Positions 20,034-46,561 of a stretch of 64,000 nucleotides of DNA are shown here, one piece after another. How positions within the stretch are numbered: the first letter of the stretch is position 1; every line of letters starts with the position of its first letter. A model generated the notes under the pieces. That model saw only the letters and a program-made list of their open reading frames with translations. It had not been told where the DNA came from and searched no databases. The position numbers and the translations under genes were made by a program. The stretch covers positions 62,001 to 126,000 of the forward strand of contig NZ_JAGEVF010000005.1 in assembly GCF_017581965.1 (NCBI RefSeq), given 5' to 3'. Source of the DNA: Winogradskyella pelagia. Its GTDB lineage: Bacteria > Bacteroidota > Bacteroidia > Flavobacteriales > Flavobacteriaceae.

Positions 20034-21428
20034 CTACTGTCCACGATAGTATAAAATAGTACTCATTGTCTTTAGAAAGATATTAATATCTAAAAAAACA
20101 CTGCGATGCTTAATATAATACAAATCATATTGTAGTTTGGTTAGGCTATCCTCTACCGAAGCACCATAACGTTCATTAACCTGCGCCCAACCTGTCAGAC
20201 CAGGTTTAATGATATGTCTGGTTTCATAAAAAGGAATAATCCGAGAGAGCTCATTAACAAAGAATGGTCGTTCTGGTCGCGGACCTATGATGCTCATCTC
20301 GCCCTTAAGAACATTAAAAAATTGCGGTATTTCATCGAGCCGCGAACGTCTTAAAAACTTGCCAAAAGGTGTTATGCGCTTATCGTTTTTCTGCGCCCAT
20401 TTTACACCATCTTTTTCAGCATCAGCAATCATAGTACGGAGCTTTAAAATTTGAAAAGGTTTACTGTTACGCCCAATACGCTCTTGCTTATAAAATAATG
20501 GCCCTTTATTACCTAAAAGATTCCCCAAATAAATAAAGGGTAATATAAATAATCCAAAAGCCAATCCGAGCAATGAAATAATAATATCAAATAGTCGGTG
20601 AAAGAAAATATAGAGTTTATTTTCATTACTTCGACTAAAGGGAAAATACTTGTAGAAATCCTTTCCCACAAACTGTATCGGAACACGTTGCAGCATCTGC
20701 TCATATACCTGAGTGTATTCTCTAATTTTAAAGCCGCGTTCCAGCAGTAACATCAAATCGTGATAAACTTCAGCAATAATGGCTTCGGCGTTAAAACTAG
20801 CTACAAGCACTTCAGATACTTGTTCTTTTTCTATGACCTCTAAAAAGTTTTTAGCCTTAAACTCTGGCAACCCTGTATATTTTATAGCATCCTCATGACT
20901 TGGTTCGCTATTGATAAATCCCACAATTTTATAGTTAGGGTCTTTTGTATCTAATGCTTTTACCAAACCTTCTAAGTTAGAAATCTCAGCAACTAACAAA
21001 ACACGTTTGTAAAATCGTGGGGACTCAATTAAATAGATGTAGCCCAAGCGCCAAACTAAAATGGAGGCTATTAAGGTTAAATAAAAATAAAGAATTTGAA
21101 TACGTTCTTCTGGTAAAAAAGGCGTAACTACGGGAGTTAACATATAAAATAGTACCACTGTAGAACAAGTAATTACAGTGTTTCTAAAGGTGGTATCGAA
21201 GCGACTAGCCCGTTTTAAGTGATACAATTCAAATACCGTCCCGAATACAATTATGTACAGTAGTAAAACTATAATTTCGGTAAGGTTATTTTGATTAATA
21301 AAAAGGTATTCATAATCAAAGAAAAGACCTAGAATATAAACCCCGAGGAGCACCATGGCCATATCCATAAGGCGCAATAGCACCTTACGTTCCGATACTT
21401 CGAAATGAATTCCTTTTTTATTAGTCAT
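20034..21428 (-). CDS. Polyprenyl-phosphate sugar-1-phosphate transferase (WcaJ type)
   Basis: A 464-residue initiating glycosyltransferase that moves sugar-1-phosphate from a UDP-sugar onto undecaprenyl phosphate. It has four or five N-terminal membrane segments (about 15-130), a Rossmann-like CoA-binding-3 domain (about 140-260), one more hydrophobic segment near 285, and a catalytic C-terminal bacterial sugar transferase domain with FYKQERIGRNSKPFQILKLR, SRLDEIPQFFNVLKGEMS and GPRPERP. It is the last gene of the polysaccharide locus. A second, minimal transferase lies at 45971-46561, so the locus has two initiators. Confidence 0.95.
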   Translation of the reverse strand: MTNKKGIHFEVSERKVLLRLMDMAMVLLGVYILGLFFDYEYLFINQNNLTEIIVLLLYIIVFGTVFELYHLKRASRFDTTFRNTVITCSTVVLFYMLTPVVTPFLPEERIQILYFYLTLIASILVWRLGYIYLIESPRFYKRVLLVAEISNLEGLVKALDTKDPNYKIVGFINSEPSHEDAIKYTGLPEFKAKNFLEVIEKEQVSEVLVASFNAEAIIAEVYHDLMLLLERGFKIREYTQVYEQMLQRVPIQFVGKDFYKYFPFSRSNENKLYIFFHRLFDIIISLLGLAFGLFILPFIYLGNLLGNKGPLFYKQERIGRNSKPFQILKLRTMIADAEKDGVKWAQKNDKRITPFGKFLRRSRLDEIPQFFNVLKGEMSIIGPRPERPFFVNELSRIIPFYETRHIIKPGLTGWAQVNERYGASVEDSLTKLQYDLYYIKHRSVFLDINIFLKTMSTILYYRGQ

Positions 21429-21483: not shown

Positions 21484-22491
21484 TTATAATAAAAAGTCTT
21501 GCCATTTTGGTTTAACGGCGTCCCAGTCAAATTGTTCCACTTTAGTTCTTGCGTTTGTTATAAGTCGTCTTCGTAAATCAGTATCTTTTGTCAGTTGAAT
21601 AATGGCGTTGGCCATGGCCTGAACATCATTGGATGTTACCAAAAGCCCCTCAAACTTGTCCTTAATCAGATAAGGCAAACCTCCAACGTTGGTAGAAACC
21701 ACTGGCAGGCCTAGAGCCATAGCTTCTATAACACTTACAGGTGTATTATCAATTGTAGTTGTGTTTATAAATATGTTGTGGTTCTTTGAAAGGGCTATCC
21801 ATTGTGTTTTGGTCATTAGCCCAGTAAAGTTAACTTCTAGGTTCTTTTTTTTGGCCAACTCCTTACAGGTTTGAAGTGACCCATCGTTTTCGGGACCAAC
21901 CATTGTCAATTCGGCCGAATAGCCCTTAGTCTCCAATACTTCTAATACCTTTATCGCCAAAGTGGGATTGTATATTTTTGAAAATGAGCGCACCCAAAAG
22001 AGCTTGACACACTCTATTTCCCTATCCTTAAAAGGGTAGATTTCAAGTTCAATTGAATTTGGAATATATAATACCTCCTTGTAATCATAAGACTGAAATA
22101 CATTTTTTAAGAATGGAGATGGAGCCACCAATTTCTTAGCGTATCTAAAAATTAAGGCACTCTTTTTTGGATGATGTTTTAGTCTATATTCTAGTTGACC
22201 ACCATGAAGAATAGGAATATAAGGTAAATTTAAAACCCTACACAACTGGCTAACCAAAAGCGCATAGTAAAAATTAGTAGTACTATAAGTATCAATAAGC
22301 ACAACATCAGCTTTCTTGCGTCTTCGCCAGACCGTTGCCATCATATCTAGAAGACGCAGAACCTTGTTTGATTGCCGCGATGCAATATGCACCTCACAAA
22401 ACTCTTGCAAGTAATGCCCTAGAGTATCTATTGAGGAAACCGTTCTACCTTGGGCTTGCAAGGCGTTTCCGATGTATAGGACGTTTGTCAT
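21484..22491 (-). CDS. Glycosyltransferase family 4
   Basis: A GT-B fold enzyme of 335 residues. The C-terminal nucleotide-sugar site is visible as TIDNTPVSVIEAMALGLPVV (an E-x7-E-type motif with Asp-Asn in place of the first Glu) followed by NVGG and the DKFEGLLV loop. The ATG at 22491 (MTNVLYIGNALQAQG) is preferred to the longer frame from 22500. It overlaps the 3' end of the O-antigen ligase gene by 47 bp. Acceptor and donor cannot be inferred. Confidence 0.9.
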   Translation of the reverse strand: MTNVLYIGNALQAQGRTVSSIDTLGHYLQEFCEVHIASRQSNKVLRLLDMMATVWRRRKKADVVLIDTYSTTNFYYALLVSQLCRVLNLPYIPILHGGQLEYRLKHHPKKSALIFRYAKKLVAPSPFLKNVFQSYDYKEVLYIPNSIELEIYPFKDREIECVKLFWVRSFSKIYNPTLAIKVLEVLETKGYSAELTMVGPENDGSLQTCKELAKKKNLEVNFTGLMTKTQWIALSKNHNIFINTTTIDNTPVSVIEAMALGLPVVSTNVGGLPYLIKDKFEGLLVTSNDVQAMANAIIQLTKDTDLRRRLITNARTKVEQFDWDAVKPKWQDFLL

Positions 22492-23806
22492 AGGTAACAT
22501 TTAATAAGGCCAAGCCATATATAAATCCTGGAGCGGCAATACGCATCGCTGAATGATTAATTGTAGCAAACCAAAATACAAGAAAGGCATAAAAGAATAT
22601 ATTATACGAGTTTTTCGCATACATATCTAGAGGCTTAAAAATTAAAATAAGCAAGATTATAATACCCAAAATTCCGTGCTCAGAAAGTAATCTACTCATC
22701 TCATTATGAGAGGCAACAACATCGCCTTGGGTAATTAATCTAATTTCTTTCATGCCATTGGCACCAACACCAAGGAATGGGTTATCAATAAACCCCTCTA
22801 ATTCAGAAAGAAAAATGTCCAATCGCCCAGCACTTATATCTTCTTTTTCTCGTCCTAATTTATCCTTTCCCGAATAACGTTTATCAATGAGCCCACTAGT
22901 TTGGCTTGAACTTATAGTCCATATTACAGTCCCAATTACTATTAACGAAATAAAATAGACAATAATATTGCTTTTTTGTTTAGTCTTAGATTTTATGTAG
23001 ACCATTATTAGAAAAGCCGCTATCATTAAAATTGCAGTGAGTACACCTCCTCTGCTAAATGTAACAATTCCCCTAAAAGCGATTAAACTGAATATAGCTA
23101 CATTGAGAATCTTTAAGCCGATATTCTTTGAATTTAAGAAAAACTGACTACAAAATACAAACATACCTAGGCCCAGCACAGTTGAAACCTGATTAGGACC
23201 AAACCCTCCTGAGGTTGCAAAATTTGACTCCGTACCAGTAACAATATCTTTTATGCTAGGCGTATATAAAAACAAATATGTGGTTAAAGTAACGATTGGC
23301 AATCCAACATATAGCAAAATAGTTTGGACTTGTTTCAGGGTTAACTTTTTATTATAGCAATACAAGGCTGAAATTCCGAGGCATACAGGTCCACTTAAAA
23401 CAAACGCTACATTTTTACGCAGGTTACCATCAAACCGAAGATCAATTGATGCTATAACGATTGAAGGTATTAAGAATATCAATACTAAGAAATAAGGATA
23501 GGCTTTGTTAGATAAACCACTATAAAACATACCGATTAGTAAGAATAGAATAATAAAATACTTTGAGGACTCATAAAACAAACCAGCACCTGTCATCCTG
23601 AATATCACCTCAGCACCAACTATATAACAACAAGCCATAAGAACCTTAAGTACTTTTTCATTTTTGGGTGCTGCGATAACTTGAAAGAAGAAATACCCAA
23701 TAACAGCATAGAAATATAGACTTGGAAAAATGCTCAAATAATACATCATCAAACCTAGAATGATATGAAATATAATTTGAGATATATATTTTGTTTCCGT
23801 CATCAA
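22445..23806 (-). CDS. O-antigen ligase / Wzy-type polymerase
   Basis: A 453-residue integral membrane protein with about 12 hydrophobic segments and the Wzy_C (O-antigen ligase) signature in its large periplasmic loop: SAGRLDIFLSELEGFIDNPF, LGVGANG, and SHNEMSRLLSEHGILGI, with the Arg and His expected for catalysis. Family members either polymerise undecaprenyl-linked repeats (Wzy) or ligate glycan to lipid A (WaaL) or to protein. The locus has an ABC exporter and no Wzx flippase, so a ligase role is at least as likely as polymerisation; sequence alone cannot decide. Confidence 0.9.
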   Translation of the reverse strand: MMTETKYISQIIFHIILGLMMYYLSIFPSLYFYAVIGYFFFQVIAAPKNEKVLKVLMACCYIVGAEVIFRMTGAGLFYESSKYFIILFLLIGMFYSGLSNKAYPYFLVLIFLIPSIVIASIDLRFDGNLRKNVAFVLSGPVCLGISALYCYNKKLTLKQVQTILLYVGLPIVTLTTYLFLYTPSIKDIVTGTESNFATSGGFGPNQVSTVLGLGMFVFCSQFFLNSKNIGLKILNVAIFSLIAFRGIVTFSRGGVLTAILMIAAFLIMVYIKSKTKQKSNIIVYFISLIVIGTVIWTISSSQTSGLIDKRYSGKDKLGREKEDISAGRLDIFLSELEGFIDNPFLGVGANGMKEIRLITQGDVVASHNEMSRLLSEHGILGIIILLILIFKPLDMYAKNSYNIFFYAFLVFWFATINHSAMRIAAPGFIYGLALLNVTYDKRPIHRKRLASPR

Positions 23807-36036: not shown

Positions 36037-37305
36037 CTATTTCAAAATATCTTTAAATAGTTTCATATATGCTTTGGTCTGAACTTGCAATCCATATTTT
36101 CGGTAGGCCTCTTCCCTTATGCGCGCTCTGTTAAATGTGTGCTTAGTTTCCAAAAACTGCTTAATGGTTGCTAATAATGACTCGCTACTTATAGCTTTAG
36201 TAAGTAAGCCGTTTTCACCATCTATTACCATATCGGTAATACCTCCAACAGGAAACCCAATTACAGGTGTTCCGCAAAGTAGGGATTCTATAACCGTGTT
36301 TGGTAAATTATCCATTAATGAAGGAATGACAAACACATCTGCCGAAGCATACACCATACTCATTCTTTGCTCATCTTTTATTGCTCCCAATTCTATGGTA
36401 TTGACCATTGGTTCTATATCATCTGCTTTATTACCTACCGCACACAAAACCACATCATCGCTCTGCAACTTGGATAAAGCATGTTCTAAAAAAGCATAGC
36501 CTTTTCTGTGGTTATGGATGGAGTCTGCAACAAAAAGAATAAAGGTCTTATCCTGAGGAATGTTTAAAACTTCTCGGAAATGGACTTTATTCCTAGGTTG
36601 AAAGATGTCTGAATCGATGCCATTCGGAATTAAACTTACAGGATAATCCCTAAACAAAGGACTTTTACTTATTTCGTTGGTCATCCATTGGCACAGGCTT
36701 ACCAAATGTAAATTATTAACGTTTGATAAGGCAGCCATTTTTAAGGAAAGGTTTTTTTCTGCGATACACATTTCATTTTCAGGAATACATCGTTGTATTG
36801 GGTGTCCTGAAGCATCCATACCCAAAATGGTTTCTTTATAATGTTCTCCGCCTGTAAAAGGATTCATATCGTGCAATGTCCACACCACTGGCTTCGTATT
36901 CTTCTTAAAAAACGAAGCATAATCTAAAAATCCTGCTACCCAATGCAGATTAATAATATCTGCCTCTTTGTACAATGGTGATGTGGTTATATCGAAATCG
37001 GATTGCGGAAAACTAAACAACTCTAAACCTGCTTCCCTACTATTTAAAAACTCTTGATCTCTGAATTTTTGTGTTTTATAAATCCCTAAAAAGCGTAATG
37101 CGCTAAAGCATTTTTGCTTTAATCGTTGAAGTATGCTTTTTTTCTTTTTGGTTGGTTGAAACTGATACGTTTCCGTTAATGATTTCTCTTTATGCTTTAG
37201 AAGAACCTTAGCATCAACACCTTCTTGCAAAAGACCTTGGTGCAAGCGCAAACATGCATTTGCCGCACCACCTTTGTCGAACGTATTGACGATTAGTATG
37301 TTCAT
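36037..37305 (-). CDS. Glycosyltransferase family 4
   Basis: A 422-residue GT-B enzyme of the WcaC-like type. It starts ILIVNTFDKGGAANACLRLH, has WTLHDMNPFTGGEHY in the acceptor domain, FILFVADSIHNHRKGYAFLE in the donor domain and IPSLMDNLPNTVIESLLCG, where the first Glu of the motif is replaced by Asp. CRGC-like Cys residues (GHPIQRCIPENEMC) in the middle are shared by this subfamily. Substrate unknown. Confidence 0.94.
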   Translation of the reverse strand: MNILIVNTFDKGGAANACLRLHQGLLQEGVDAKVLLKHKEKSLTETYQFQPTKKKKSILQRLKQKCFSALRFLGIYKTQKFRDQEFLNSREAGLELFSFPQSDFDITTSPLYKEADIINLHWVAGFLDYASFFKKNTKPVVWTLHDMNPFTGGEHYKETILGMDASGHPIQRCIPENEMCIAEKNLSLKMAALSNVNNLHLVSLCQWMTNEISKSPLFRDYPVSLIPNGIDSDIFQPRNKVHFREVLNIPQDKTFILFVADSIHNHRKGYAFLEHALSKLQSDDVVLCAVGNKADDIEPMVNTIELGAIKDEQRMSMVYASADVFVIPSLMDNLPNTVIESLLCGTPVIGFPVGGITDMVIDGENGLLTKAISSESLLATIKQFLETKHTFNRARIREEAYRKYGLQVQTKAYMKLFKDILK

Positions 37306-37308
37306 ACA

Positions 37309-38274
37309 TTATTTTTTTCCATAAATGCATATTCCAGAGGACAGTCCTAAGAACTGCAATAAAATTCTATAAAGAAGATTGAAATATTCCAAAATTAGCT
37401 TTATACCTGTTCTCAACTTAAATTTTGAAAACGCCTTTATGGCATACATTATTTTTGGCGAATGTATATTAGGCCAATACACAGGATGTCCCAATCTATA
37501 GTGGTCTTTTATAAATAGTTTAATGCCGTTCTTCTCTAATAAATTAGAAAGATTACCCATCCTAAAAGCAAACAAATGTCTAGGTGGATCCAATGCAAAT
37601 GGTCTTACTGAAAGCAACTTGCTGAATGACACATTTTTAAAGTTTTCGGTATATAATTTCAAATAAAAATCCTTGACTCCTTTTTTGAATAATATTTCGA
37701 TTCCAGCATTGTTATCGGTTTCGATTATAAAAATACCGTCGTCCTTTAAGATTGAGGAAATACTTTCAATAACTTCATTTGGTTCGGTAACATGCTCAAT
37801 AACATGCCTAAAAAATACGACATCGTACTTTTCGGTATTGCTTGAAAAAAATTCGTTTAAATCCTTCTTAATTATAGATTTGAGATTCAGTTTGTTTTTT
37901 GCAAAATCCACTGATACGGAATCTTTTTCGACCAAAATTGGTGACATTCCATATTCTGAAGCTGCTTTGGAGTAATAACCCAATCCTCCACCTAAATCGA
38001 GAAAGGTTTTGCCTTTACTTTTTTCACCATTCCATTTCAATCTTTTTAAATAACCCTTTATTGATTTTGATGCACGACTCATTTGCACTTCATTAAATGA
38101 AATTGCTTTTTCTTGGTACATGCCTGTGTAATAGGTGTTCAGTTCATCTACCGAAGGTTGTGGGTGTACAAAAGCCACTTTGCATTTTGGGCATCTGTAT
38201 ATGGAGTTATCCGTTTTTTTATGTTCCAAAAGAAGCTTTGGAGTTATATTATTTTCGCACACCTTACAAATCAC
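37309..38274 (-). CDS. SAM-dependent methyltransferase with N-terminal zinc ribbon
   Basis: A 321-residue protein. Residues 1-35 form a zinc-ribbon-like CKVCEN...CPKCK with four Cys. Then comes a Methyltransf_23-type domain: FLDLGGGLGYYSKAASEYG (motif I), LVEKDS, DVVFFRHVIEHVTEPNEVI and DGIFIIETDN. This architecture is common in glycan clusters and natural-product loci, where it methylates sugars. It lies between a GT4 and the radical SAM fusion gene (10-bp gap). Confidence 0.9.
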   Translation of the reverse strand: MICKVCENNITPKLLLEHKKTDNSIYRCPKCKVAFVHPQPSVDELNTYYTGMYQEKAISFNEVQMSRASKSIKGYLKRLKWNGEKSKGKTFLDLGGGLGYYSKAASEYGMSPILVEKDSVSVDFAKNKLNLKSIIKKDLNEFFSSNTEKYDVVFFRHVIEHVTEPNEVIESISSILKDDGIFIIETDNNAGIEILFKKGVKDFYLKLYTENFKNVSFSKLLSVRPFALDPPRHLFAFRMGNLSNLLEKNGIKLFIKDHYRLGHPVYWPNIHSPKIMYAIKAFSKFKLRTGIKLILEYFNLLYRILLQFLGLSSGICIYGKK

Positions 38275-38284
38275 ACCAATACAA

Positions 38285-40438
38285 TTAGATTGTTAAACTT
38301 TCGATTGTTTTTAAATTTTCGAGCATCTCGTTGTCTTTTAAATACGCATGTATTTTACCTCCCATTGTATAATCTATGGCAATGAAATCGGTCTTTAATG
38401 TATGTGCAAAAAGTACGGAATGGAATCGCATACAGATATTTAACTTCGATTTTTTCATGGCCTCAATAATAGAATCTACAGTAGATAATTTTTTATTCAT
38501 CACCACACGCACATCGCCTTGAAAATAGGTGTCGATAAATCGTCTTGAAAAATCCCTGTCATCATTACCCACAACAAAATTATGCATATGGTGCAATTCT
38601 ATTCTATCGACATTAAGCCGCTCTGCCTCTCGCTTTATCAATTTTGCAATGCCTTGCTCCAAGGTTGTTTTTTTTTGTTCAAAAACCGATTTCTCTCCTG
38701 GAAAATACTCAAAGGTCCAATCTCTCAAAAAACAAGAAAGCACGTTCTCATTTTTTACATCAATCTGTTCACTTTGGCCTAAGACAAATCCCTTGGCAGG
38801 ATCACCAAACAATTCTGCTTCGTTTTTGTATCCAAATGCATTGTAAGCCGCAATACTATCCTTGTCTCTTAACTTAACATAGTCCGTTAAAGAAAAAATT
38901 TCCTTGACGGTTATTAGGTATTTTTCGTGTTTTAATGGTCCGATACCACATCCAAAAACGGTTGTCTTTTTACCATAGGCTTTGGCAATTTTAAATCCTA
39001 AGTAAGGCACGTACAATACCTCTAAATCCATCAACGGACCACCTCCCATAACAATCTCATCCGAACTTTTTGCATATCGTAATAAATCCAATGTTTTAGT
39101 GGATACTACTTTTGCTTTCAATTCTAATTCTTCACAAGTTCTTTCGGTTACAAATGGGTATAAACTGCCAATAACAAATTCGACTTTACTGTTGTACTCC
39201 TCTTTGTAGTAGTTTACGATTCCGCCCAAAATAGCCTTATCGCCAACGGTTTCGGTTCCATACCATCCAAGGACAAAAACCGTAAACAAGCTCGAATCGG
39301 TCTTACCTCCTTTTAATACTTTAGCGAGTTTCAATGCTCTGCCAACCGATTTTATATTCAAAATTTTAGAGTTGAATATCGCTTCCAACTCAATCTTTCG
39401 TTCTTTGTATGTTATTGGAGCATGGTAATCGTGTATGCAGCTATTGCAGTGTTCTTTAAGGATGCGTTCTTTCTCTTCAAAATTGTTCTTATAAATATCT
39501 AGGCTAGATAATTCCAAGGCATTGCCAATGATCTTGGATTTAGGAGCGCAGTAACTGATTTGACCTTTAGAACCCAAAACAATTCCATCATTATGATAAG
39601 GACAGCCTATAAGCCTATCTCCTCCTTTTAATATATTTTGAATACTTGAGTACGTTCTTTGGAAAGTTCCGTTTTTCTCATAGGTGAGTTTTAGCTTTTC
39701 AAAAAACAGAAGCAAATTGAAGGTTTCATCTGCATTAAAATTTCTAATGACCTTGCCACGATCTTGATTATATAACCTGTTTATGGTTTCCGCGATTCTA
39801 AAACGCCCATACATATTGTATTTTTTGGCGTAATACAACAAATCATCAGCATCCCAAGCGTTTATTTTAGAAATTGTACAACCGAAGGAGGTTGGTATTT
39901 TTAATTCCTGTTCCAAATAATTGAAGACCTTTATCGCTTTATCAAAATTACCCTTTACACCTCTTACCTGGTCGTGTGCCTTGCCTACTCCGTCAATAGA
40001 TACCATTGCTGAAAAATGAACTCCATTTTCGTCGCAGATGTTTTTTATTTTCTTAATTCTATTGATTACTTCTTCGTTCTCGATGGCATTGGTAATAATA
40101 CTCAATCCCTTGATGCCTGGAACTGCCTTTATAATAGAGCTATATATATCTGGTAAGTCTTCACGCAAAGTGGGTTCTCCTCCGGTAACACCAACATATT
40201 TTAATTCTGAAAACAAAGGGTCGCAAAGGACAGTCTCTAATTCTTCTGGAGTGATTTCGAGCTCTTCCTCCTGTTTCCAAATGTTGCACATGGTACATTT
40301 GGAATTGCAACTATCTATAATGTTTAAATTTAGGATACTTGGTTTTGCGTTAACATCTAAAGACTTTGCTTTATTTAGACGATAGAGGTGCCTTCCCTGT
40401 CGGTATATCGTCTTTAAACCATGTGAAACTGAACGCAT
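38285..40438 (-). CDS. Radical SAM - polysaccharide pyruvyltransferase fusion protein
   Basis: A 717-residue two-domain protein. Residues about 35-300 are radical SAM: C44-x3-C48-x2-C51 (CNSKCTMC) binds the 4Fe-4S cluster and GGEP is at 86-89. Residues about 285-355 hold further Cys (LIGCPYHNDG, ISYCAPKS, CNSCIHDYH), like a SPASM auxiliary-cluster region. From about 385 to 700 is a polysaccharide pyruvyl transferase domain: GWYGTETVGDKAILGG, EIVMGGGPLMDLEVLYVPYL, FGCGIGPLKHE and CMRFHSVLFAHT. Pyruvyltransferases add ketal-linked pyruvate to sugars from PEP. The radical SAM partner suggests a further modification, but the reaction is unknown. The frame is continuous across the join, with an AAGAGG ribosome binding site. 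Confidence 0.9.
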   Translation of the reverse strand: MRSVSHGLKTIYRQGRHLYRLNKAKSLDVNAKPSILNLNIIDSCNSKCTMCNIWKQEEELEITPEELETVLCDPLFSELKYVGVTGGEPTLREDLPDIYSSIIKAVPGIKGLSIITNAIENEEVINRIKKIKNICDENGVHFSAMVSIDGVGKAHDQVRGVKGNFDKAIKVFNYLEQELKIPTSFGCTISKINAWDADDLLYYAKKYNMYGRFRIAETINRLYNQDRGKVIRNFNADETFNLLLFFEKLKLTYEKNGTFQRTYSSIQNILKGGDRLIGCPYHNDGIVLGSKGQISYCAPKSKIIGNALELSSLDIYKNNFEEKERILKEHCNSCIHDYHAPITYKERKIELEAIFNSKILNIKSVGRALKLAKVLKGGKTDSSLFTVFVLGWYGTETVGDKAILGGIVNYYKEEYNSKVEFVIGSLYPFVTERTCEELELKAKVVSTKTLDLLRYAKSSDEIVMGGGPLMDLEVLYVPYLGFKIAKAYGKKTTVFGCGIGPLKHEKYLITVKEIFSLTDYVKLRDKDSIAAYNAFGYKNEAELFGDPAKGFVLGQSEQIDVKNENVLSCFLRDWTFEYFPGEKSVFEQKKTTLEQGIAKLIKREAERLNVDRIELHHMHNFVVGNDDRDFSRRFIDTYFQGDVRVVMNKKLSTVDSIIEAMKKSKLNICMRFHSVLFAHTLKTDFIAIDYTMGGKIHAYLKDNEMLENLKTIESLTI

Positions 40439-40527: not shown

Positions 40528-41322
40528 CTATATGGTAATTTCTTTTTTCTCAAATGCATCAAAATCTGAATTTGGATCTGCATTATAAATTTCGAAATTA
40601 CGACTATTTGCTTTCATCTTGAAGGACTCGTACAGTTTATATGTTCTACAATAGCTATAAAGCCGTTCCTTTGGTTGTCTTCCTGTAAATGCTGGTTTTT
40701 CTGTTATTATTCCATCTTGTTTAAGGTAAAACTCCAAAGACGGTTTGCTATGGTCATAAAAATGAAAATAGCCTTCTTTATTCTGCCAATCGTGGTCAAT
40801 ACCCAATAAATTCAATTCCTCCAATCCCATATAATAACCCAACTGAATGGCAACCATAGCAACCGTTGTAGGCGAAACAATCCTTTTTGAAAAATCTATG
40901 GGAAAGTTACCTCCATAAGCATATTGATATAGTTGGCGTGATTTAAAAACAGATTTTGCCAATTCAAAATCCTTTTGCTCTACAAAAACAATAGTGTCTT
41001 TTGGAAGCATTTCCTCAGCCCTTGCAAACCAATTTTTAAATACATTTTCTGTTATTGGCGGATGCGATGATGCAAAGATGTGAACCTGAGGATTTATGGT
41101 TTTAATATCTGGGTGTTCATGGAAATTTCCCATTGAGATCATCAAAGCATCTTTATCTAACTTTTTCAAATCTAACTTATTTATAGAAGGAGCGGACCCA
41201 AGGATGAAGCCCTTTGAATGAGAGCTAAATATATTTTTTAGCTCCGTATTTTCAGGAAATAAGACATCCTTTTTCAGCAACTTTTTCACCTTAGCTCTTA
41301 TCAACTTGAATACCTTGGTCAT
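40528..41322 (-). CDS. DUF115/MptE-like or GT42 sialyltransferase-like protein
   Basis: A 264-residue protein with GFILGSAPSINKLDLKKLDK near 34-53, then VHIFASSHPPITE, SPTTVAMVAIQLGYYMGL, LNLLGIDHDWQ and a C-terminal NFEIYNADPNSDFDAF. The order of motifs matches both DUF115 (MptE-like, also in flagellin Maf transferases of nonulosonic acids) and the CST-I/GT42 sialyltransferases, which share a GxGPSL-type start, an ALGY...GID core and an LxxxNPxS end. The locus makes a CMP-nonulosonic acid, so a transferase role is attractive, but it is inference. It overlaps wzt by 4 bp. Confidence 0.65.
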   Translation of the reverse strand: MTKVFKLIRAKVKKLLKKDVLFPENTELKNIFSSHSKGFILGSAPSINKLDLKKLDKDALMISMGNFHEHPDIKTINPQVHIFASSHPPITENVFKNWFARAEEMLPKDTIVFVEQKDFELAKSVFKSRQLYQYAYGGNFPIDFSKRIVSPTTVAMVAIQLGYYMGLEELNLLGIDHDWQNKEGYFHFYDHSKPSLEFYLKQDGIITEKPAFTGRQPKERLYSYCRTYKLYESFKMKANSRNFEIYNADPNSDFDAFEKKEITI

Positions 41323-42610: not shown

Positions 42611-43474
42611 TTAAACCGTATCAATAAATTGTTTCTCGGTTCTGTTAAACACCACTAGACCAAGTAAAAAAATTATAACGCTTATCATCGCTGTATACCC
42701 AAAATTTGTCCATGTAAAACTTCCCGTATCTAAAAGCATTTTTCGAAACCCTTCTGTAATCTGGGTTAAAGGGTTGAGCTCCACCAATCGTGCTACTAAT
42801 GGCGGAAATTTTAATCGTGCTTCTGATAAGGGATAAGGCACTGCTGAAACGTACATTAACAACTGTACACCAAAGCCCACTAAAATTGTTAAATCTCTAT
42901 ATTTAGTGGTCATAGCAGAAATTAACATTCCTAAGCCTAGACCTAATAAGGCCATCAATAAAACATAAAGGGGAAATAAAAACACCAAACCGCTAAGAGC
43001 CACGGTACTCCCCTGCCACCAGTAAAACAGAAAAAAACCAAAAAATATAGCCAACTGTATACTGAACTTAAGCAGGTTGGAAATCGTTACGGACATAGGC
43101 ATAATCACACGCGGAAAATACACCTTCCCAAAAATAGCCTGATTTTTGGTAAAGGTATTGGAAGTTCCCGTTAGACATTCTTTAAAATAGTTCCAAGCGG
43201 TAATTCCAGCCAAATTAAATAAAAAAGGCGGGATTGAACCTGTCTGTATTTGGCCAAGATTATTAAATATAAGAGTGAATATAAGCGAAGTAAATAACGG
43301 TTGAATTAGGTACCACAGCGGCCCTAGAATAGTTTGCTTATAAAGAGTAACAATATCCCTTTTAACAAAAAGGAATAAGAGATCTTTATACCGCCATATT
43401 TCCTTAAAATTAAAATCTATTAGCTTTTGCTCTGCAGAAATTGAATAGAGCAAGTCATCATTAGTAGTTTTCAA
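42611..43474 (-). CDS. wzm: Polysaccharide ABC exporter permease (Wzm)
   Basis: A 287-residue ABC-2 type permease with about six membrane segments. The N-terminal amphipathic stretch FNFKEIWRYKDLLFLFVKRD, LGPLWYLIQPLFTSLIFTLI and NPLTQITEGFRKMLLD are typical of O-antigen/teichoic acid exporters. With Wzt it would move a completed lipid-linked chain across the inner membrane. A 197-bp AT-rich gap (43475-43671) separates it from the epimerase gene; I found no perfect TAnnTTTG box there, so whether a new transcript starts is open. Confidence 0.94.
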   Translation of the reverse strand: MKTTNDDLLYSISAEQKLIDFNFKEIWRYKDLLFLFVKRDIVTLYKQTILGPLWYLIQPLFTSLIFTLIFNNLGQIQTGSIPPFLFNLAGITAWNYFKECLTGTSNTFTKNQAIFGKVYFPRVIMPMSVTISNLLKFSIQLAIFFGFFLFYWWQGSTVALSGLVFLFPLYVLLMALLGLGLGMLISAMTTKYRDLTILVGFGVQLLMYVSAVPYPLSEARLKFPPLVARLVELNPLTQITEGFRKMLLDTGSFTWTNFGYTAMISVIIFLLGLVVFNRTEKQFIDTV

Positions 43475-44678: not shown

Positions 44679-45974
44679 TTATAAGCGTGCATCTACACTA
44701 TTTGAAGGCAATAAGGACTTCACGTCAAAAACAACACAGCTTTGAGCTTTTAAGTTATCCAATGACATATTTAAAAATTCGTTATGCGATACCGCTAAAA
44801 TAATAGCATCGTACTGAGGTTTCAATTCAGACAATTCGGTTTTAAGATCTAAACGATATTCATGTCTTACTTCTTCTTTAGAAGCCCAAGGATCGTGTAC
44901 ATCTACATTGACATGATATGATTGTAATTCTTTAATAATGTCTATAACTCTAGAATTTCTTATGTCCGGACAATTTTCTTTAAACGTGATGCCTAAAACC
45001 AACGCATTGGAACCTTTAATGGTAGCTCCATTATTAATCATCATTTTCACCGTTTCTGTAGCCACATAACTTCCCATACTATCGTTCATTTTCCGTCCAG
45101 CTAGGATTATTTCAGGATTATATCCAGACTCTATAGCTTTTTGGGCCAAATAGTAAGGATCTACTCCTATACAGTGACCTCCCACTAAACCTGGTGAAAA
45201 CTTTAAGAAATTCCATTTGGTTCCTGCGGCCTCTAAAACCGCCTTGGTATCTATATCTAAAAGTCTAAATATTTTAGATAGTTCATTGACAAATGCAATA
45301 TTAATATCGCGTTGAGAATTCTCAATAACTTTGGCAGCCTCCGCAACCTTAATAGAAGGTGCTAAATGGGTACCTGCTGTTATTACAGCTTTATATAGAT
45401 TATCAATGCGCTTAGCCACTTCTGGGGTAGATCCAGAAGTTACTTTTAAAATTTTTGTAACCGTATGCTTTTTATCTCCTGGATTAATGCGCTCTGGAGA
45501 ATAGCCTGCATAAAAATCGGAATTATATTCTAAGCCAGAATGCGTTTCTAAAACCGGAATACAGATTTCTTCAGTAGCTCCAGGGTAAACAGTAGACTCA
45601 TAAATAACAATATCGCCTTTATCCATAACCCTTCCAACAGTTTCACTCGCCTTAATTAATGGTGTAAACACTGGTTTATTAAGGGCATCCGTTGGTGTGG
45701 GGACAGTGACAATATAGATATTACAGGATTTCAAGGCTTCTGTATTATTAGTTACCAATAAACCTCTTTCTGCGGTTTCATCCGTTATTAAAACAGATTT
45801 TAAAGCGTCATCTTCAACCTCTAATGTCTTATCTGTACCAGAGTTTAATTCATCTATTCGCTGCTTATTGATATCGAAACCAACAACATAGAATTTTTTT
45901 GCAAATTCAACAGCAAGGGGCAAACCAACATAACCTAGACCAATAATAGCGATTCTGTCTTGTGAATGTGTCAT
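44679..45974 (-). CDS. UDP-N-acetyl sugar 6-dehydrogenase (WbpO/TviB type)
   Basis: A 431-residue nucleotide-sugar dehydrogenase that oxidises the C6 hydroxyl of a UDP-HexNAc to the uronic acid with two NAD. Visible: the N-terminal Rossmann motif IGLGYVGLPLAVEF, VYPGATEEICIPVLE, the catalytic GGHCIGVDPYYL with Cys near 266, and the C-terminal domain start LGITFKENCPDIRNSRV. Its start overlaps the stop of the small sugar transferase by 4 bp. The TviB/WbpO assignment rests on motif similarity and the adjacent epimerase. Confidence 0.93.
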   Translation of the reverse strand: MTHSQDRIAIIGLGYVGLPLAVEFAKKFYVVGFDINKQRIDELNSGTDKTLEVEDDALKSVLITDETAERGLLVTNNTEALKSCNIYIVTVPTPTDALNKPVFTPLIKASETVGRVMDKGDIVIYESTVYPGATEEICIPVLETHSGLEYNSDFYAGYSPERINPGDKKHTVTKILKVTSGSTPEVAKRIDNLYKAVITAGTHLAPSIKVAEAAKVIENSQRDINIAFVNELSKIFRLLDIDTKAVLEAAGTKWNFLKFSPGLVGGHCIGVDPYYLAQKAIESGYNPEIILAGRKMNDSMGSYVATETVKMMINNGATIKGSNALVLGITFKENCPDIRNSRVIDIIKELQSYHVNVDVHDPWASKEEVRHEYRLDLKTELSELKPQYDAIILAVSHNEFLNMSLDNLKAQSCVVFDVKSLLPSNSVDARL

Positions 45975-46561
45975 TTGTTTAAAGTAGATTTTAGAATGTA
46001 GATCAAATCTAAATAAAAACTATAATTTGAGACGTAGTTTTTATTGATTTTCACTTTATCTACCCAAATAATCGTTCTATTGTAGTGGTCTGGGTCTTTT
46101 TGCCGTTCTAATACACGCTCCTCATCCTTATATTTTAACGTCGCAGGCCCTGTTATTCCTGGCTTCACATTTAAAATAATCCGATCATCACCTTCTAATT
46201 CATCTGCGAAGCCTCGCACATCGGGTCTAGGCCCAACAAAACTCATATCACCTTTTAACACATTAAAAAGCTGGGGCCATTCATCTAATTTAGACTGCCG
46301 TAAAAACCGCCCAAGTGTTGTAGCACTCTTATCTAGATGCCCTAATAAATGTGGTTCCTCGCGCAATGTCCTTAATTTATAGATGAAAAATGGTTTGCCA
46401 TGTTGCCCAATACGTTGTTGACTAAAAATGCCGAAAGCCTTTATATCTAAAGATGCAAGTATAACCAAAACGACAATTGGAAAAAAGAGCACGGGTAATA
46501 GCAACACGGCGAGGAGTAAATCGAAAAGACGCTTAGTTTTAAGTTGAGTAGATGTTATCAA
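45971..46561 (-). CDS. Minimal sugar-1-phosphate transferase (PglC-like)
   Basis: A 196-residue monotopic phosphoglycosyltransferase with only the catalytic domain: an N-terminal membrane hairpin (LFDLLLAVLLLPVLFFPIVV), FSQQRIGQHGKPFFIYKLRT, QSKLDEWPQLFNVLKGDMSF and GPRPDVRG. It starts glycan assembly by moving sugar-1-phosphate to undecaprenyl phosphate. It is the second initiating transferase of the locus. It lies 11 bp downstream of wzc. Confidence 0.93.
   Translation of the reverse strand: MITSTQLKTKRLFDLLLAVLLLPVLFFPIVVLVILASLDIKAFGIFSQQRIGQHGKPFFIYKLRTLREEPHLLGHLDKSATTLGRFLRQSKLDEWPQLFNVLKGDMSFVGPRPDVRGFADELEGDDRIILNVKPGITGPATLKYKDEERVLERQKDPDHYNRTIIWVDKVKINKNYVSNYSFYLDLIYILKSTLNK

What the first reader, a model, noticed from the sequence alone, without database searches (positions are those of the whole stretch)
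38285..40438. Radical SAM enzyme fused to a polysaccharide pyruvyltransferase
One continuous 717-codon frame joins a radical SAM domain (C-x3-C-x2-C, GGEP, plus a SPASM-like Cys set) to a complete pyruvyltransferase-like domain. The two domain types are usually separate proteins, and I do not know of a characterised fusion. In a glycan locus this could be a two-step sugar modification, for example radical chemistry on a sugar followed by ketal formation.
Basis: partly seen in the sequence, partly recalled or inferred. Interest (0 to 1): 0.65.

Follow-up and report, generated by a model that had tools for sequence, protein, structure and literature searches.

The report
Radical enzyme fused to sugar pyruvyltransferase
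One gene in a bacterial surface-sugar locus encodes a single protein with two enzyme halves, one that probably uses radical chemistry and one that probably adds a pyruvate group to a sugar; the same two-headed protein recurs in distantly related bacteria, which points to an unstudied way of decorating cell-surface sugars.

Summary
Window 38285-40438 (minus strand) is one 717-codon frame joining a radical SAM enzyme to a PF04230 ketal-pyruvyltransferase. The extra cysteines are a four-Cys twitch-type set, not the seven of a full SPASM domain. It is no lone accident: one scan gave 48 loci with both halves, in Bacteroidota, Pseudomonadota, Planctomycetota, Cyanobacteriota, Chloroflexota and others. 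In 48 aligned fusions all seven cluster cysteines are invariant, and the predicted PEP-binding residues are kept in 46-47; one degenerate copy accounts for all exceptions but one. AlphaFold gives a confident two-domain model (pLDDT 93.6, pTM 0.93). In 35 of 42 main-clade loci a GT4 glycosyltransferase related to E. coli WcaC follows within three genes, and in one genome it is fused on behind. Best reading: a bifunctional tailoring enzyme acting on a lipid-linked polysaccharide precursor, with radical chemistry by one half, PEP-dependent pyruvylation by the other, and GT4 acting on the same intermediate. Pyruvylation is well supported by homology; the radical step's substrate and outcome are inferred only. 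Nothing on the fusion was found in the open-access papers searched. New variant of known enzyme kinds.

The parts
38285..40438 (-). fusion gene, 717 aa: radical SAM/twitch half (1-375) and ketal-pyruvyltransferase half (384-717)
39314..40438 (-). N-terminal half, radical SAM barrel plus twitch region (residues 1-375)
   Evidence: Pfam PF04055 residues 39-181; model aligns to SkfB Z 22.5 and BlsE Z 21.4; coordinates checked
40286..40309 (-). C44-x3-C48-x2-C51, ligands of the SAM-binding [4Fe-4S] cluster
   Evidence: invariant in 48 of 48 aligned fusions
39437..39604 (-). C279, C297, C331, C334: twitch-type auxiliary cluster ligands
   Evidence: invariant in 48 of 48
38288..39289 (-). C-terminal half, PF04230 ketal-pyruvyltransferase (residues 384-717; Pfam match 399-690)
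   Evidence: hhalign to E. coli WcaK, 321 columns, E 1.2e-13
38867..38869 (-). R524, aligned with an Arg of WcaK; by motif CsaB R148
   Evidence: 47 of 48; CsaB numbering from PMC10435577, correspondence inferred
38723..38725 (-). R572, aligned with an Arg of WcaK; by motif CsaB R207
   Evidence: 46 of 48; correspondence to CsaB inferred
38420..38428 (-). R671-F-H673, matches R-L-H of Pvg1p (R337, H339 by an inferred offset)
   Evidence: 47 of 48 each; profile alignment to 5ax7, E 0.11
38354..38356 (-). K695, matches K361 of Pvg1p (inferred offset)
   Evidence: 47 of 48
36037..37305 (-). GT4 glycosyltransferase (WcaC-related), the recurrent partner of the fusion
37309..38274 (-). SAM-dependent methyltransferase (zinc-ribbon-like start) between fusion and GT4; homologue at +1 in L012, L015, L020, L033
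35135..35971 (-). GT2 glycosyltransferase (WcaE-related)
   Evidence: TIGR04009 E 1.1e-27, below cut-off
40528..41322 (-). 264-aa protein, weak MptE-like match (below cut-off), directly upstream; same place in L010 and L054
41319..42608 (-). Wzt-type ATPase of a polysaccharide ABC exporter (429 aa, with C-terminal extension)
42611..43474 (-). Wzm-type permease of the same exporter
   Evidence: PF01061

Best explanation
A bifunctional glycan-tailoring enzyme. The C-terminal half transfers pyruvate from phosphoenolpyruvate onto a sugar as a ketal. The N-terminal half binds SAM on a [4Fe-4S] cluster, makes a 5'-deoxyadenosyl radical, takes a hydrogen atom from a sugar carbon of the same glycan intermediate, and uses its auxiliary cluster as electron carrier for a net oxidation (less likely an epimerisation). 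Both halves most likely work in the cytoplasm on a lipid-linked, still growing polysaccharide precursor that the neighbouring GT4 glycosyltransferase also uses; the product then leaves by the Wzm/Wzt exporter here, by a flippase elsewhere. Shown by computation: architecture, conserved residues, confident fold, recurrent GT4 partner. Inferred from homology: pyruvyl transfer. Inferred only: that the radical substrate is a sugar, the outcome, the order of steps, the lipid-linked stage.
For: Both Pfam domains over their cut-offs. Seven cluster Cys in 48 of 48 fusions; R524, R671, H673 and K695 in 47 of 48, R572 in 46 of 48. Profile alignment puts R671-x-H673 and K695 on R-x-H and K of Pvg1p (weak, E 0.11) and the same residues plus R524 and R572 on R/R/R-x-H/K of E. 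coli WcaK. Mutating the residues that I take to match stops or weakens P. alvei CsaB (PMC10435577, passages). AlphaFold: pLDDT 93.6, pTM 0.93; distant relative L048 88.3 and 0.86. GT4 homologue on the same strand within +3 in 35 of 42 clade-A loci, another GT4 in 7 of 7 clade-B loci, and GT4 fused behind the pair in G504. Order flippase-fusion-GT4 (L044) matches wzxC-wcaK-wcaL of colanic acid. Rank correlation of distances fusion-GT4 0.81 (0 of 2000 permutations) against fusion-Wzt 0.21 (257 of 2000) in 15 loci. CsaB and WcfO act on lipid-linked precursors (PMC6801904, passages). Nearest solved radical enzymes after SkfB include BlsE, which acts on a sugar acid.
Against: The fusion-GT4 correlation falls within Bacteroidota alone to 0.43 (50 of 5000; 11 loci) and is 0.33 (97 of 5000; 13 loci) outside it, so part of it is shared deep ancestry. 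The best structural and sequence match of the radical half is SkfB, a RiPP maturase that acts on a peptide. GT4 of this family also occurs without the fusion. No common sugar-nucleotide pathway was seen among the loci (read), so the substrate is not identified. Four loci with intact fusions (L031 and its near-copy L032, L043, L056) have no GT4 of this family within +3 on the same strand, nor has the tandem pair in L055.
Confidence: 0.66

Rival explanations
1. Only the pyruvyltransferase half acts on the glycan; the radical half acts on another molecule or serves as a redox/oxygen-sensing or structural part.
For: The best solved match of the radical half is a peptide-modifying enzyme, SkfB. In the family sample every strong match of either half is a fusion, so the halves cannot be told apart by co-occurrence there.
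Against: All seven Cys and GGE are invariant in 48 of 48, as for a working enzyme. More distant standalone relatives of the radical half also sit beside glycan genes: in the five loci that I chose for a test (L067, L074, L006, L076, L087, of 35 such loci) the next gene is a Pfam group-1 glycosyltransferase. In L055 the second copy keeps the seven Cys though its pyruvyltransferase half has lost the PEP residues.
Confidence: 0.17
2. The C-terminal half has the GT-B fold but is not a pyruvyltransferase (for example a glycosyltransferase or sugar epimerase).
For: Best structural matches are non-hydrolysing UDP-GlcNAc 2-epimerases (6vlb Z 20.5, 10% identity); it scores far below NCBIfam's CsaB cut-off (96.8 against 213.1 bits).
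Against: Over Pfam's PS_pyruv_trans cut-off; full-length hhalign match to WcaK with the predicted PEP residues aligned; those residues kept in 46-47 of 48.
Confidence: 0.09
3. The fusion makes the chain-terminating cap that the carbohydrate-binding end of Wzt recognises, as WbdD does for O9a (recalled), with the slot between Wzt and GT4 holding swappable cap enzymes.
For: Wzm/Wzt in 23 of 42 clade-A loci; relatives of the GT4 without the fusion sit in Wzm-Wzt-X-GT4-GT2, X being one to six other genes, in 4 of 6 regions read; WbbZ pyruvylates the chain end of Klebsiella O1 (PMC10629545, passages).
Against: Fusion distances do not follow the Wzt C-terminal part (0.12, 717 of 5000 permutations, 15 loci); 5 of 42 clade-A and 4 of 7 clade-B loci have a flippase of one cluster upstream, none of them with Wzm/Wzt. 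In Klebsiella O1 the exporter does not depend on the cap.
Confidence: 0.1
4. Assembly or gene-calling artefact joining two neighbouring genes.
For: None found.
Against: Both halves joined in 48 loci of another collection and in further assemblies; one unbroken frame here.
Confidence: 0.01

Closest known systems
WcaK, colanic acid pyruvyltransferase of E. coli K-12 (PF04230)
   Same: Full-length alignment to the C-terminal half with matching Arg, Arg, Arg-x-His and Lys; wzxC-wcaK-wcaL order parallels flippase-fusion-GT4.
   Different: 426 aa, with no room for a radical SAM domain; 18% identity; the fusion's partner GT4 is nearer WcaC (388 columns, E 8e-31) than WcaL (188 columns, E 1.3e-13).
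CsaB (P. alvei) and Pvg1p (S. pombe) ketal-pyruvyltransferases
   Same: Pyruvyltransferases of the same family; PEP residues R-x-H and K align to Pvg1p.
   Different: Far below the CsaB equivalog cut-off; CsaB has 396 aa (PMC10435577), and neither has a radical SAM domain (recalled).
BlsE, cytosylglucuronate decarboxylase
   Same: Radical SAM enzyme acting on a sugar acid; profile match to PDB 7vob E 6e-14 and structural Z 21.4.
   Different: 37.4 bits against a cut-off of 400; different extra Cys spacing as reported (PMC3715490, passages); no pyruvyltransferase half.
SkfB, sactipeptide maturase
   Same: Closest solved relative of the radical half: E 6.3e-22, Z 22.5.
   Different: Acts on a peptide (recalled; 'RiPP maturase'); no peptide substrate gene was recognised here, though none was searched for.
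Twitch radical SAM sugar enzymes HygY and NeoN
   Same: Radical SAM enzymes that epimerise sugars of aminoglycosides (HygY by its title in a reference list, NeoN by passages of PMC10991966).
   Different: They use a hydrogen-donating Cys; in the fusion no Cys outside the clusters is invariant (C135 in 34, C187 in 28 of 48). Not compared by sequence here.
Standalone twitch-like radical SAM genes near glycan genes (L057-L089 without L071, L005-L007)
   Same: About 22-32% identical to the radical half; a number of them beside GT4 genes.
   Different: No pyruvyltransferase half.

Membership tests
Radical SAM superfamily | CX3CX2C motif and PF04055 match over the curated cut-off | tested here: met
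   51.4 bits against 29.5; three Cys in 48 of 48
Radical SAM superfamily | partial TIM-barrel fold | tested here: met
   model residues 4-331 align to SkfB and 31-347 to BlsE at Z 22.5 and 21.4
Radical SAM superfamily | reductive cleavage of SAM | not testable with these tools
   needs purified protein
SPASM subfamily | seven extra Cys for two auxiliary clusters (definition recalled) | tested here: not met
   only four further invariant Cys: C279, C297, C331, C334
Twitch radical SAM enzymes | shortened SPASM region with Cys ligands for one auxiliary cluster (definition recalled) | tested here: met
   C279, C297, C331, C334 in 48 of 48; the cluster itself was not observed
PF04230 polysaccharide pyruvyl transferases | Pfam score over the curated cut-off | tested here: met
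   83.2 bits against 25.3
PF04230 polysaccharide pyruvyl transferases | PEP-binding Arg, Arg, R-x-H, Lys | tested here: met
   46-47 of 48, aligned to WcaK; R-x-H and Lys also to Pvg1p, weakly
PF04230 polysaccharide pyruvyl transferases | PEP-dependent ketal transfer | not testable with these tools
   needs assay
CsaB (TIGR03609 equivalog) | score over 213.1 bits | tested here: not met
   96.8 bits
BlsE (TIGR04466 equivalog) | score over 400 bits | tested here: not met
   37.4 bits
PTO1314 family radical SAM (TIGR03961) | score over 306.05 bits | tested here: not met
   77.1 bits

The most novel reading that the evidence does not exclude
A whole unstudied class of surface-polysaccharide tailoring: a radical SAM enzyme that does C-H chemistry directly on the lipid-linked repeat unit, at or beside the sugar that its own second half pyruvylates (possibly on the ketal itself), giving a monosaccharide not yet described. 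With its GT4 partner it forms a three-activity cassette that has moved between ABC-exporter and flippase loci over many phyla, and in one genome (G504) has become a 2290-residue protein that adds TPRs and a second, B12-binding-type radical SAM domain.
Probability: 0.42. Interest if true: 0.8.

Novelty: new variant of a known kind. Interest (0 to 1): 0.6.

Why it matters
Radical SAM enzymes are well known for cofactors, peptides and antibiotics (recalled); a widespread one welded to a surface-glycan enzyme would make radical sugar chemistry a normal tool of capsule and O-antigen building. The fusion names the reaction partner, so the question becomes testable: find the pyruvylated sugar in one of these polysaccharides and look at what else was done to it. 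Loci with the fusion come from named strains too, for example Algibacter luteus (L019), Reichenbachiella agariperforans (L029) and Pedobacter ureilyticus (L024).

Tried and rejected
Phage or mobile origin: no match in plasmids at E 1e-15, one 24% match to the radical half only in phages at E 1e-10, no relative among 71 pattern matches in IMG/VR.

Capping by Wzt recognition: not supported by distance correlations, kept as a rival.

Cys-dependent epimerase of HygY/NeoN type: the non-cluster Cys are not invariant, so judged less likely than oxidation; another hydrogen donor is not excluded.

Uronic-acid decarboxylase like BlsE: a TviB-like dehydrogenase is in the window but only 3 other loci (L035, L037, L039) show one; not pursued.

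Split pairs: in a sample of 249 genomes of the family every strong match of either half is a fusion (pyruvyl half: 4 at 337 bits or more, next 79.8; radical half: 4 at 430 or more, next 121). The genome-contig scan was seeded on the CX3CX2C region, so it could not find lone pyruvyltransferases; 74 of its 154 relatives were not returned and not read.

Pvg1p is not among the 50 structural rows shown; that is no evidence against kinship.

A weak MptE-like neighbour (40528-41322) gave no PDB relative at E 1.

Literature: three searches joining 'radical SAM' with pyruvyl terms gave 0, 0 and 3 papers; in all three papers only the passages with those words were read, and they concern other matters. 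Searches on radical SAM enzymes in glycan or sugar settings listed nothing that names such a fusion in title or abstract start; those listed papers were otherwise not opened, except PMC10991966 and PMC3715490 (passages). A review of pyruvate on glycoconjugates has no hit for 'fused', 'fusion', 'bifunctional' or 'radical' (PMC6801904, word counts). Subscription papers are not covered.
Full report
OBSERVATION. The frame at 38285-40438 on the minus strand runs from ATG to stop, 717 aa, one copy in a 3.36 Mb genome whose window is part of a 222.5 kb contig. Pfam gives Radical_SAM (39-181) and PS_pyruv_trans (399-690), both over their cut-offs. The NCBIfam matches shown (best 25 of 43) are below their cut-offs, best CsaB 96.8 of 213.1 bits and rSAM_PTO1314 77.1 of 306.05. 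So each half belongs to a broad family but, among the models shown, to no named specific one. It lies in a glycan locus: Wza-like, Wzc-like, a sugar phosphotransferase, TviB/TviC-like enzymes, Wzm and Wzt upstream; a methyltransferase, GT4, GT2 and sialic-acid-type synthesis genes downstream (the Wza, Wzm and Wzt names are partly recalled from sequence).

HOW COMMON. In 249 genomes of the family 7 match at E 1e-10; 4 are full fusions and 3 match the radical half only (frames). In 395 genomes of the phylum 4 match at E 1e-25 (G000, G176, G383, G504), each with both halves. One scan of a collection with one genome for each of 84,980 species gave 80 loci: 48 hold both halves (L010 interrupted, L036 cut by its contig) and 32 the radical half only. 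The scan was seeded on the CX3CX2C region and returned 80 of 154 relatives. By the record titles and the 48 come from Bacteroidota, Pseudomonadota (Alteromonas, Yersinia, Pseudomonas, a Zetaproteobacterium, Rhodospirillaceae), Planctomycetota, Verrucomicrobiota, Cyanobacteriota, Melainabacteria, Chloroflexota, Bacillota (Christensenella), Bdellovibrionota, Rhodothermota and SAR324; many are MAGs. On the tree of 50 rows Bacteroidota needs at least 5 changes, so transfer or old paralogy is likely; the two Alteromonas rows group (100/99) with seven rows that are mainly Flavobacteriaceae. Pyruvyltransferases without this fusion are commoner: 57 of 60 PF04230 places in 296 phylum genomes. Of the four other long frames in that list I read three (G413, G452, G380); none shows a radical SAM half by eye.

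RESIDUES. Alignment A2 holds 48 rows: the window plus 47 from 46 loci; L010, L036 and L090 were left out. C44, C48, C51, C279, C297, C331, C334 and G86-G87-E88 are invariant, 48 of 48. R524, R671, H673, K695 are kept in 47 and R572 in 46; all exceptions but one lie in the second of two tandem copies in Christensenella (L055), the other is T at 572 in L054. L090 and L036 keep all fifteen positions checked. Published work finds R148, R207 and H308 important and K328 involved in PEP binding in CsaB (PMC10435577, passages). A profile of the pyruvyl half aligns R671-F-H673 and K695 with R-L-H and K of Pvg1p, weakly (E 0.11); residue numbers R337, H339, K361 follow from an offset I inferred. Against WcaK the whole half aligns (321 columns, E 1.2e-13) with R524, R572, R671-x-H673 and K695 opposite the same residues.

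FOLD. The window protein models at pLDDT 93.6 and pTM 0.93; the distant Pseudomonas palmensis relative L048 at 88.3 and 0.86. So high a pTM for two domains suggests a defined mutual placing, but I had no coordinates or PAE. Radical half: SkfB Z 22.5 over 292 residues at 4.5 A, BlsE Z 21.4 over 286 at 3.4 A. Pyruvyl half: UDP-GlcNAc 2-epimerases, Z about 20 over about 290 residues at about 10% identity, that is, a GT-B-like fold. A shared fold shows no function.

NEIGHBOURS. Of 49 loci besides the window (L010-L056, L071, L090; near-copies such as L016/L017 and L031/L032 not removed), 42 are clade A and 7 clade B (L045-L049, L051, L053), split by the clustering and the tree. In 35 of 42 clade-A loci a homologue of window gene 36037-37305 (GT4) lies within +1 to +3 on the same strand (in L011 and L026 as two frames). 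The seven others: L090, where it is fused on; L036, whose contig ends within a further stretch; L055 with a tandem copy; and L031, L032, L043, L056. In the window it is at +2, after the methyltransferase. Of 36 members of the GT4 cluster, 34 lie at +1 or +2 (L091 repeats L038). The gap to the next gene on the same strand is 12 bases or less, overlaps included, in 40 of 47 rows (the rows include L091 and the two pieces of L010, and the next gene is not always the GT4), which suggests co-transcription. Wzm/Wzt are in 23 of 42 clade-A loci, a flippase of cluster 10 within -3 in 5, never both; clade B has another GT4 within +3 in 7 of 7 and that flippase in 4 of 7. The GT4 is a relative of WcaC (388 columns, E 8e-31).

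A THREE-PART PROTEIN. This physical link supports a shared substrate.

CO-VARIATION. Distances of the two halves correlate at 0.86 in 49 rows and 0.89-0.90 in subsets. Fusion against GT4: 0.67 in 32 loci (0 of 2000 permutations). In 15 loci with all four genes, near-copies dropped: fusion-GT4 0.81 (0 of 2000), fusion-Wzt 0.21 (257 of 2000), fusion-Wzm 0.16 (407 of 2000), control Wzt-Wzm 0.90 (0 of 2000). In 16 loci with the GT2, fusion-GT4 is 0.69 and fusion-GT2 -0.16 (1814 of 2000). The GT4 N-terminal half, in such enzymes the acceptor side (recalled), follows the fusion more than its C-terminal half: 0.83 against 0.71 in 15 loci, 0.65 against 0.44 in 28; the difference itself was not tested. 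Against this: within Bacteroidota fusion-GT4 is 0.43 (50 of 5000, 11 loci) and 0.37 (89 of 5000, 15 loci), outside it 0.33 (97 of 5000, 13 loci). So much of the strong value comes from deep divergence between groups; what is left is modest, though above fusion-Wzt in the same 11 loci (0.22, 482 of 5000), again without a test of the difference. No species tree was used.

GT4 WITHOUT FUSION. GT4 relatives at E 1e-50 are in 31 of 249 genomes, 3 of which have the clade-A fusion; G176 (clade B) has one on another contig. Of the six best-scoring regions without the fusion, four show Wzm-Wzt-X-GT4-GT2, X being one to six other genes, in two a sulfotransferase-like one by my reading; the other two show no Wzm/Wzt. 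The fusion thus sits in a slot that also holds other genes, some of them tailoring-like. Standalone radical SAM relatives are followed by a GT4 in the five loci that I chose to test.

MECHANISM. CsaB and WcfO work on lipid-linked precursors (PMC6801904, passages), WbbZ on a chain end (PMC10629545, passages). From this I infer a lipid-linked acceptor here. For the radical half, the complete auxiliary Cys set and the lack of any other invariant Cys favour oxidation over Cys-dependent epimerisation; this is inference. BlsE shows that a related radical enzyme can act on a sugar acid (PMC3715490, abstract and passages), NeoN that a radical SAM enzyme can epimerise an aminoglycoside sugar (PMC10991966, passages).

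VERDICT. The finding is real, conserved and, as far as the open-access searches reach, not described. It is a new variant built from known enzyme kinds, not a new kind of system.

Noticed in passing
   Followed up: partly
L110:3045-7742: Another giant glycan-type frame (over 1566 aa, runs off the contig) with a pyruvyltransferase match; by my reading also methyltransferase-, glycosyltransferase- and TPR-like stretches, no radical SAM half seen.
   Followed up: no
L036:4761-7155: Verrucomicrobial fusion frame runs past the pyruvyl half into about 70 residues that look to me like the start of a GT4-type domain before the contig ends; BLAST against the window and neighbour proteins gave no significant match for this tail.
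   Followed up: partly
L108:527-2923; L109:686-2695; L101:748-3057: Other pyruvyltransferase fusions, by my reading of the sequence: with an FrhB-like Fe-S protein, with a zinc-ribbon methyltransferase (like the gene next to the window fusion), and with a glycosyltransferase-like domain.
   Followed up: no
L055:5552-10092: Two fusion genes in tandem in Christensenella; the second has lost the PEP residues but keeps all seven cluster Cys.
   Followed up: partly
L010:7968-10139: The fusion frame is interrupted by an in-frame stop in this MAG; left as it is.
   Followed up: no
L112:2342-7234: A tandem repeat of a 233-aa gene and a glycosyltransferase-like gene between Wzt and GT4.
   Followed up: no
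40528-41322: 264-aa gene with a weak MptE-like match right before the fusion, also at -1 in L010 (70% identical) and L054 (28%); no PDB relative by sequence.
   Followed up: partly
20034-21428 and 45971-46561: Two sugar phosphotransferase genes, a long WcaJ-like and a short one, in one locus, together with a Wzm/Wzt exporter and a possible Wzy-like membrane protein at 22445-23806 (named by eye; no NCBIfam match).
   Followed up: no
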